DNA from: Tubulanus polymorphus
Lineage: Eukaryota; Nemertea; Palaeonemertea; Tubulaniformes; Tubulanidae
Assembly (NCBI RefSeq): GCF_964204645.1
Contig: NC_134027.1
Span: 5,010,485 to 5,074,484 of the forward strand
Direction: 5' to 3'
Length of the DNA stretch: 64,000 bases
The notes under the pieces were generated by a model. That model had not been told where the DNA came from, did not search any database, and was given only the letters and a program-made list of their open reading frames with translations. The number at the start of each line of letters is the position of its first letter. Within the stretch, counting starts at the first letter, position 1. This document shows, piece by piece, positions 31,801 to 63,437 of this stretch. The translations under genes and the position numbers were made by a program.

Positions 31801-34800
31801 GAATCCCCCCAGGGCCCATCAAAATATCAAAAATTGGGTCGGTCGGACTCAAGATGGCTGTCCTATGACCTTTTTAGTGCCCAAAAATGTTAATTTTTGC
31901 CCGAATTCTGAGTCCTGTAGCTTCCTACTTGTTTACCATTTCTCATTGCAATTTGTGATGGGTATTCTTTGGAAAGGGATGTTTTATACCTGAGACAGGT
32001 ATTTTTCATCAGCCAATTATGACGCAATTGGCGGCCATTTTGGTGTCACCAGTACTCATTCGTAAATGGGAAAAAGTTTTTCCACATTATGTTGATACCT
32101 AAGCGTATTTTGCTACCACAATCAATTAGAAAGTTGTAGCTCATAACATGTGCTATGATTGTGGTGTGTTTCAAGGTAATTAGATTTCGTTTATGGCCAC
32201 CAGGGGGCGTTGAATAATACAATATCTTAGCATTTCTTTATTATATTCGTACCTATGCATATTTTGTAACCACAATCAATTGGAAAGTTGTAGCTCATGA
32301 CATCATCTATGATTGTTGTGAGTTTTAAGGACATTAGTTTTTCTATATGGTCACCAGGGGGCATTGAATAGTAGAATAACTTAGTATTTCCTTATTATAT
32401 TGGTACCTAGGCATATTTTGTTACCATGATCAATTGCAAAGTTGTAGTTCATGACATGTTCTATGATTGTGGTAAGTTTTGAGGTCATTGGGTTTTGAAT
32501 ATGGTCTCCAGGGGGCATTGAATAGTAGAATAACTTAGTATTTCCATATCAAATTGGTAACGAGGCATATTTTGTTATCACAATCAATTACAAAATCGTA
32601 GCTGCTGACATGTTCTATGATTGTGGTGAGTTTCAAGGTCATTGGTTTTGTATATGGTTGCCAGGGGGCGTTGAATATTGAAATTTTTAGATTGTTGAGC
32701 ATTTGGAACCACTTCCCAAGTGGGCATGGTGTCCCTGGACCCCTAGTTAAATTCGCGTTATTTGTCATCGTTCACAGACCGGGAGGTGAATTGAATTCTG
32801 GCGAAGATGAGGTCGCTGGTTTAAAGCGCCTTTTAACTGAGGTATGTTCTTCATATCTATAATAGTTAGTCAGTGTGCCGATACATCCTATCAGTTCTTC
32901 TTAAATATCATGTAATTTCTGATTTTCTCATTTATTTTTGTATGTGAAGCTTAGATTATTTATCCGACTTTATTTGCTATGCTTTTCCTGTTCAATTATA
33001 GACACTTGGTCGTCAAGATGGCGTGCCAGTTGATTGGGTGATCGAAGATGTGGCAGCACGCTGGTGGAGGCCTAATTTTGAACCCCCTCAGGTAAATAGA
33101 TTTCAGTTAATGACGGATCTGATTCTACAGCACATCCAGGGTCAGTCCCTCGAAAGTTGGTTATAGATAACCGGTGGATAAATAACATCGTTACAATGAA
33201 CTTTTAATCGTCACTTTGTCGACTATCCACTAGTTTAACTTATCTCTCACCAACTTTCGAGCAACTGGTTTGACTTCGAATACAGAGTTTACTTTATGTT
33301 TGAGTGTCTTTTCAATTTCCAGTATCCATACATACCAGCTCATATAACGAAACCAAAAGAACACAAGAAATTATTCTTGGTCCAATTACCTGAAAAAGGT
33401 GCGTAGATATTTTTTTGATTGCATGTTAAAGAATCATTTAAAAAAATACCATTTGACAATGTATAATCTGTAATGGTGATTGTGATAGTAGTCATTCTCT
33501 TGTTTAGCATTGTTCGCTGTTCCACGGAATTATAAACTAGTTGCAGCACCATTGTTTGAACTGTATGACAATTCAGCTGGTTATGGACCAATCATTTCTA
33601 GTTTACCACAAACATTAAGCAGGTCAGTAGTTAATTTATGTGGTTCTGTGCTGCCAAGATGATTATGATGATTGATTCTGTCGCAATGCAATAGGTGGCA
33701 GAGTTGTTTTTATGATTCACTGTATCTGAGGTGACATGTTAAGAAATCCATGCTTTTGTCCAATCAATCGCTAGATTTATCCTAGCTATAACCATGATTG
33801 TTGCAATGATTACCTGACAGATTTTATTCAATATTTCACATATTTTGTGCATGCTTCAACTAGACGTTACCAGCCTGAATTGTGAATTATTTTTTTGTTG
33901 TTTTGGTTGTCTGTTGAAATCCATTTATCTATTTGAATGTCATGGTAGGAGGCCTTATTTCCGTAAACTCGAACGTTAATTCGATGGCGTAAGTCTGATT
34001 AAAAAAAAATCCGTTAATTTACCAGTGTTTACACGCAGGCTGTATTCTAATATTCCTCATTTATTAGCCAACCTATTCAGGGCGCAAAGCTTACTGACAA
34101 AGATGCTTTTAGCCGGGATTAAATACGCTGGTTATCCTTCATTAAAATACCAGATTTGCGCATTAACAGCACGTGAAAGCATTACTCCGCCTTGAATACA
34201 CGGTTTTCGTCGCTTTTGTCTTTAACGCGCTGGGTATGAACTCTGTTGCTGGCATTCAACAATGTGTAGTCGTTGGAGTCCATTTGTATGATTGAAAACT
34301 CACACGCATCAAAGTTATCGCGTTGAATAGCCTTACCATAGCATTGATTTAATGTTGACATACAGAATCTAGGAGTACTTACAAATGACTACTGAAATGA
34401 CTACCGCTGCGTAGTCGTTTCGGCGTTAATTACAACTATTTTACAAACGCTGTCACCTCCAAAATGGATGAAGCGGATGGCAAATTAAATTTGCATTGTA
34501 AGTGTGTCGCTTTCAGTCGTTGGGGAGAGTAATTCTATTAGAGTGATGTTGATCGAATACGATCCGCAGGAACACCGATATTCATGGATTTTGGTGCTGA
34601 AAAATATAATGTCCATCGAAGTGCACCTTTGAATTTCGAAAGGATTGAACATGCCGCAGTGAACAGATTCTGTTCACCTGATATGAATTGTTTGATTTTC
34701 TATAAAATTTCATTTTATTATATTCAATTAACCGAGATAACCTATCATCGATATATGTTTTTATATCGATGAACTACGGAAATAAGACCCTATGACTCAT

Positions 34801-63437: not shown

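What the first reader, a model, noticed from the sequence alone, without database searches (positions are those of the whole stretch)
33623..63415. A 29.8-kb last intron separates the final seven codons of NUDT21 from the rest of the gene
Exon 6 ends with an incomplete Arg codon (AG|GTCAGT). The only phase-matched FNFIYN-stop I found in the window is 30 kb away, at 63416-63437, after a good acceptor (TTTATATTTTGTAG). A simple ORF or homology search would truncate the gene at 33.6 kb and call the remaining DNA intergenic. The invariant C-terminus lies in a 22-nt coding exon, so efficient removal of this outsized last intron must be coupled to the 3'-end processing that the protein itself controls.
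Basis: partly seen in the sequence, partly recalled or inferred. Interest (0 to 1): 0.85.

Follow-up and report, generated by a model that had tools for sequence, protein, structure and literature searches.

The report
Giant last intron of NUDT21 gene
In this animal genome the RNA-processing gene NUDT21 really does keep its last six whole codons behind a 29.8-kb intron; the split itself looks ancient (same position as in humans), and only the intron's size is unusual, probably because it holds DNA switches for the developmental gene scratch next door.

Summary
NUDT21 has seven exons; exon 6 ends in phase 2 at 33622, and the last codons plus stop (AGA-TTT-AAC-TTC-ATT-TAC-AAT-TAA) resume at 63416. 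The joined protein (228 aa) matches human CFIm25 through its last residue, and the degenerate C-terminal pattern occurs once in the whole 268-Mb genome. Independent support: the strongest T-over-A excess segment in 100 kb runs from 31344 to 64254, ending just past an AATAAA at 64181, as for one + strand transcription unit. Intron 6 is 29793 bp; a sample of 44 myosin introns here has median about 0.5 kb, maximum 7.3 kb. The split is not special: human exons 4+5+6 total 281 nt (PMC8517098), exactly as here (90+76+115), so the last-intron position is most likely shared with vertebrates. Only the length is unusual. I found no nested coding gene and little repeat. The next gene, on the same strand 8 kb downstream, is a Scratch-type zinc-finger regulator with dense genes beyond it. 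Best explanation: NUDT21 is a bystander whose last intron holds much of scratch's cis-regulatory domain (inferred).

The parts
28866..28984 (+). NUDT21 exon 1 (coding part)
   Evidence: start codon to gtaaga donor; protein match
31226..31426 (+). NUDT21 exon 2
32778..32841 (+). NUDT21 exon 3
33002..33091 (+). NUDT21 exon 4 (90 nt)
33323..33398 (+). NUDT21 exon 5 (76 nt)
33508..33622 (+). NUDT21 exon 6 (115 nt), donor CAG|gtcagt, ends in phase 2
   Evidence: exons 4-6 sum to 281 nt as in human
33623..63415 (+). intron 6 (last intron), 29793 bp; no nested Pfam domain, few repeats, CpG o/e 1.22, continuous T-over-A excess
63416..63437 (+). terminal coding exon: last base of Arg codon, FNFIYN, TAA
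63438..64000 (+). inferred 3' UTR: AATAAA at 63601 and, 181 bases beyond the window end, at 64181; the T-excess segment ends at 64254 in window numbering
46290..46383 (+). (CTG)31 microsatellite inside intron 6
39721..40063 (.). old dispersed repeat copy in intron 6 (about 79% to many genomic copies)
47996..48321 (.). dispersed repeat copy in intron 6
49381..49552 (.). about 150-bp dispersed repeat copy in intron 6 (85-90% to many copies)
55310..55448 (.). old repeat fragment, the only multi-copy DNA found in the last third of the intron

Best explanation
This is the true last intron of a single-copy NUDT21 (CFIm25) gene, at a position most likely shared with human, transcribed through to a poly(A) site near 64.2 kb (strongly supported by sequence, about 0.95; no RNA evidence). 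It is outsized because NUDT21 is a bystander gene: the 30 kb between exons 6 and 7, together with the 8-kb spacer after it, is the upstream cis-regulatory territory of the Scratch-type zinc-finger gene that starts at window position 71427 on the same strand (inferred, about 0.5). Enhancers inside the intron would act on the scratch promoter; for NUDT21 the DNA is simply transcribed and spliced out by ordinary terminal-exon definition coupled to poly(A) site recognition. That arrangement would keep the two genes linked and would prevent the intron from shrinking.
For: Gene model. One transcription unit: the strongest T-over-A segment is 31344-64254 for every penalty tried, 0 of 500 block shuffles reach it, and the spacer before scratch lacks it. 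Shared intron position: exons 4-6 = 281 nt here and in human circNUDT21 (PMC8517098). Outsized: other NUDT21 introns 109-2241 bp; 44 resolved myosin introns have median 508 bp, maximum 7.3 kb. Neighbour: Snail-superfamily zinc fingers, SNAI1 being a single-stretch PDB match, SNAG start MPRSFLVKK at 71427, distinct from the genome's Snail at C3:4672951. The gene-free stretch lies on scratch's 5' side and is this intron; on the 3' side come a P450 array from about 85 kb and further genes. CpG o/e of the intron (1.14-1.31) resembles the scratch region (1.18-1.35), not NUDT21 exons 1-6 (0.87). No nested gene in 134 ORFs. Developmental regulators with enhancers in introns of unrelated neighbours are an established arrangement (PMC2688929, PMC5429095).
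Against: No chromatin, conserved-element or reporter data; no other animal genome was available, so neither NUDT21-scratch linkage nor intron length could be compared between species. No held paper mentions NUDT21 together with microsynteny. CpG and repeat features are only mildly unusual: random 10-kb pieces have CpG o/e 1.03 +/- 0.14 and about half have as few repeats. High CpG also extends past scratch into the P450 region.
Confidence: 0.5

Rival explanations
1. A neutrally long intron: old insertions and drift, now eroded, with no regulatory role for scratch. Some genes in any animal genome have a 30-kb intron.
For: Four repeat relics are present; repeat content and CpG lie within the range of random pieces.
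Against: Recognisable repeats cover only about 1 kb (3%) of the intron, a lower bound, whereas the exon 1-6 part of the gene is about a third repeat in the small-sample test. The long stretch faces a developmental regulator.
Confidence: 0.33
2. The intron is a CFIm-dependent autoregulatory switch: a weak donor (CAG|gtcagt), length, intronic poly(A) sites and UGUA sites let CFIm25 level set the ratio of full-length mRNA to truncated or detained transcripts.
For: CFIm25 promotes splicing of the last detained intron of MAT2A through UGUA in the intron and a UGUU motif in the 3' UTR (PMC8139829). Donor +3 is C. UGUA sites lie at 63961, 63983, 64089 and 64178 before the distal AATAAA (64181) and none lies between the stop codon and the proximal one (63601). 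Read-through of exon 6 stops after [12 protein letters not shown].
Against: UGUA and AATAAA numbers in the intron are unremarkable (132 against 104, and 30 against 30 on the two strands); the nearest intronic AATAAA is 2 kb past exon 6; none of this needs 30 kb.
Confidence: 0.1
3. The intron hosts an undetected nested non-coding RNA or fast-evolving gene.
For: A 227-aa open frame at 60755-61435; ORF scans miss short exons and non-coding RNAs.
Against: No Pfam domain in 134 ORFs of about 55 aa or more (one E = 0.003 match to RecQ_Zn_bind, chance level) nor in the 227-aa frame; the only sub-threshold Rfam hits are on the CTG repeat; no tRNA. A 207-aa unmatched frame also occurs just upstream of scratch.
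Confidence: 0.06
4. A nearer terminal exon encodes the C-terminus and 63416 is a coincidence or an assembly join.
For: None found.
Against: Unique pattern in the genome; no close second in the window; continuous T-excess to 64254; no N and no duplicated stretch in the last third.
Confidence: 0.01

Closest known systems
Human NUDT21 (CFIm25/CPSF5)
   Same: Protein aligned through the last residue FNFIYN; exons 4-6 sum to 281 nt in both, so the last intron very likely has the same position and phase.
   Different: Last intron is 29.8 kb here; the human length was not checked.
Genomic regulatory block / bystander gene, e.g. Scaper introns holding enhancer-like elements in the Islet-Scaper pair (PMC5429095) and GRBs (PMC2688929)
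   Same: A housekeeping gene beside a developmental transcription factor, with a long intron facing it.
   Different: Here the whole putative regulatory interval lies in one last intron before a 22-nt coding exon; no enhancer or conservation evidence yet; NUDT21-scratch is not named as a pair in the papers I could search.
MAT2A detained last intron regulated by CFIm25 (PMC8139829)
   Same: Last intron, CFIm factor involved.
   Different: Different gene; autoregulation of NUDT21 is not shown.

Membership tests
NUDT21/CFIm25 (NUDIX_2) | NUDIX_2 domain and CFIm25-like full-length sequence to the C-terminus | tested here: met
NUDT21/CFIm25 (NUDIX_2) | Conserved gene structure with terminal coding exon | tested here: met
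   Seven exons; exons 4-6 = 281 nt as reported for human; indirect, since individual human exons were not seen
Genomic regulatory block (bystander gene + target) | Developmental transcription factor as neighbour | tested here: met
   Scratch-type SNAG/C2H2 gene 8 kb downstream
Genomic regulatory block (bystander gene + target) | Gene-poor interval in or next to the bystander gene | tested here: met
   No coding signal in 29.8 kb; dense genes beyond scratch
Genomic regulatory block (bystander gene + target) | Conserved non-coding elements spanning the block | not testable with these tools
   No related animal genome held
Genomic regulatory block (bystander gene + target) | Conserved linkage across species | not testable with these tools
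   Text search found nothing on this pair
Genomic regulatory block (bystander gene + target) | Repeat depletion | tested here: inconclusive
   0.7% against 3.3% mean of random pieces, but about half of the random pieces are as low
Scratch subfamily (Snail superfamily) | SNAG N-terminus plus five C2H2 fingers of Scratch type | tested here: inconclusive
   SNAG and five zf-C2H2 stretches found; Scratch rather than Snail rests on recalled signatures (HSAFKHY...NKHYESACFK) and difference from the genome's Snail; no tree built
Detained / CFIm-regulated last intron | Retention responsive to CFIm level | not testable with these tools
   Needs RNA-seq after knockdown

The most novel reading that the evidence does not exclude
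An ancient, so far undescribed NUDT21-scratch regulatory linkage: a core polyadenylation factor's last intron carries the neural regulator's enhancers, so that its C-terminal codons have been held far from the rest of the gene by another gene's regulation.
Probability: 0.25. Interest if true: 0.5.

Novelty: new member of a known kind. Interest (0 to 1): 0.33.

Why it matters
It warns that annotation by homology will drop the C-terminus of a near-invariant protein, and it offers a cheap test (intron length against linkage across species) of whether a neighbour's enhancers dictate a housekeeping gene's architecture. The strand-skew boundary is a useful RNA-free check of long gene models.

Tried and rejected
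Nested coding genes, tRNA and Rfam RNAs (the evalue hits are the CTG repeat). Direct or inverted repeats of 40 bp or more within the intron: none; tandem repeats only short arrays and the CTG run. Recursive-splicing sites (pyrimidine + AGGTRAG): none in the intron. Intronic depletion of AATAAA on the sense strand: not seen (30 against 30). The cumulative T-A maximum gave 83871, not the gene end, because skew drifts; the scored-segment test was used instead. Drosophila CG3689/scrt linkage by text search: only an unrelated microarray list. Mitochondrial COX1 to place the organism: no match in the assembly.

Full report
Observation. The window lies at C3:5010485-5074484 of a 267.8-Mb genome. NUDT21 reads on the + strand in seven exons with canonical GT-AG borders and consistent phases: 28866-28984, 31226-31426, 32778-32841, 33002-33091, 33323-33398, 33508-33622 and 63416-63437, giving 228 aa. 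phmmer aligns residues 7-228 with human CFIm25 through the last residue. Introns are 2241, 1351, 160, 231, 109 and 29793 bp.

Chance. Among all AG acceptors from 33.6 to 64 kb that would give a short phase-matched tail, RFNFIYN at 63416 scores 35 and the runner-up (SFNLLFH, poor acceptor) 18. The degenerate DNA pattern for the tail is unique in the genome, and NUDIX_2 occurs at no other locus.

Transcription through the intron. T exceeds A on the + strand in every 2-kb step from 30 to 64 kb, not in the spacer before scratch, and mostly the reverse upstream, where genes lie on the minus strand. The maximal-scoring segment is 31344-64254 at all four penalties; none of 500 block shuffles with random flips reaches it. 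Its end lies 70 bp after an AATAAA at 64181. Strand asymmetry of this kind is expected of germline-transcribed genes (own knowledge), so it supports one unit running from NUDT21 to about 64.2 kb. It is not RNA evidence.

The split is probably old. Human circNUDT21 consists of exons 4, 5 and 6, 281 nt (PMC8517098). Here exons 4-6 are 90+76+115 = 281 nt, in a stretch where the proteins align without gaps. The simplest reading is that exon 6 ends at the same codon in both animals. Only the length is peculiar to this locus. From myosin exon matches, 44 single introns in this genome have median 508 bp and maximum 7.3 kb.

Contents of the intron. No Pfam domain at a meaningful level in 134 ORFs, none in the 227-aa frame, no tRNA or Rfam gene. 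Genome searches with the three thirds found multi-copy DNA only at about 39721-40063, 47996-48321, 49381-49552 and 55310-55448, about 1 kb in all; lists for the first two thirds were truncated, so this is a lower bound. A (CTG)31 run lies at 46290-46383.

Neighbourhood. Beyond the window, 8 kb after the stop codon, a SNAG-starting open frame (MPRSFLVKK..., 71427 in window numbering) and a five-finger C2H2 exon (74579-75382) form a Scratch-type gene on the same strand. The genome's Snail lies elsewhere on the contig (C3:4672951). After scratch come tandem P450 genes and a RAF-like kinase (names by eye). The long gene-free stretch next to scratch is therefore the NUDT21 intron plus the 8-kb spacer. 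CpG o/e is 0.87 over NUDT21 exons 1-6 but 1.14-1.31 over the intron and 1.18-1.35 over the spacer and scratch. Random 10-kb pieces average 1.03, SD 0.14, so this is only a hint, and the high value continues past scratch.

Explanation. Developmental regulators often have enhancers in introns of unrelated neighbours (PMC2688929, PMC5429095). NUDT21 beside scratch fits this bystander arrangement: the intron would be long because it contains another gene's regulatory DNA. This is inference from anatomy; conservation, chromatin and linkage in other species could not be tested here, and no held paper links NUDT21 with microsynteny. The main rival is a neutrally long intron.

CFIm25 can promote splicing of a last intron, as shown for MAT2A (PMC8139829), so an autoregulatory link is possible, but 'must be coupled' is not warranted. 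UGUA and AATAAA numbers in the intron are not unusual. Two poly(A) signals (63601, 64181), with no UGUA between the stop codon and the proximal one and several before the distal one, are a weak lead for regulated poly(A) choice; the counts are too small to be significant.

Noticed in passing
window 46290-46383: (CTG)31 microsatellite on the sense strand of NUDT21 intron 6; would give a CUG-repeat stretch in the pre-mRNA.
   Followed up: no
window 32075-32677: 154-bp unit repeated 3.9 times in NUDT21 intron 2, part of a dispersed repeat of about 1.3 kb, 88-91% identical to copies in L012 and L023.
   Followed up: partly
window 29460-30530: Inverted-repeat (foldback-like) element in NUDT21 intron 1, seen by eye.
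   Followed up: no
window 12862-16569 and 24600-27924, minus strand: Two tandem, similar membrane-transporter genes, SLC43-like by eye (no Pfam hit for single exons).
   Followed up: partly
window 115-2143, minus strand: AMP-binding enzyme gene, ACSF3-like by eye (Pfam AMP-binding 5.6e-22); CpG is depleted at 4-8 kb.
   Followed up: partly
L028 and L029 (G000:C3:3463841 and C13:39644): Two nearly identical further Scratch-like genes, one on a different contig: recent duplicate or uncollapsed haplotype.
   Followed up: no
L007 to L036 (window numbering about 85 to 115 kb): Tandem array of at least three very similar P450 genes and a RAF-like kinase downstream of scratch.
   Followed up: no
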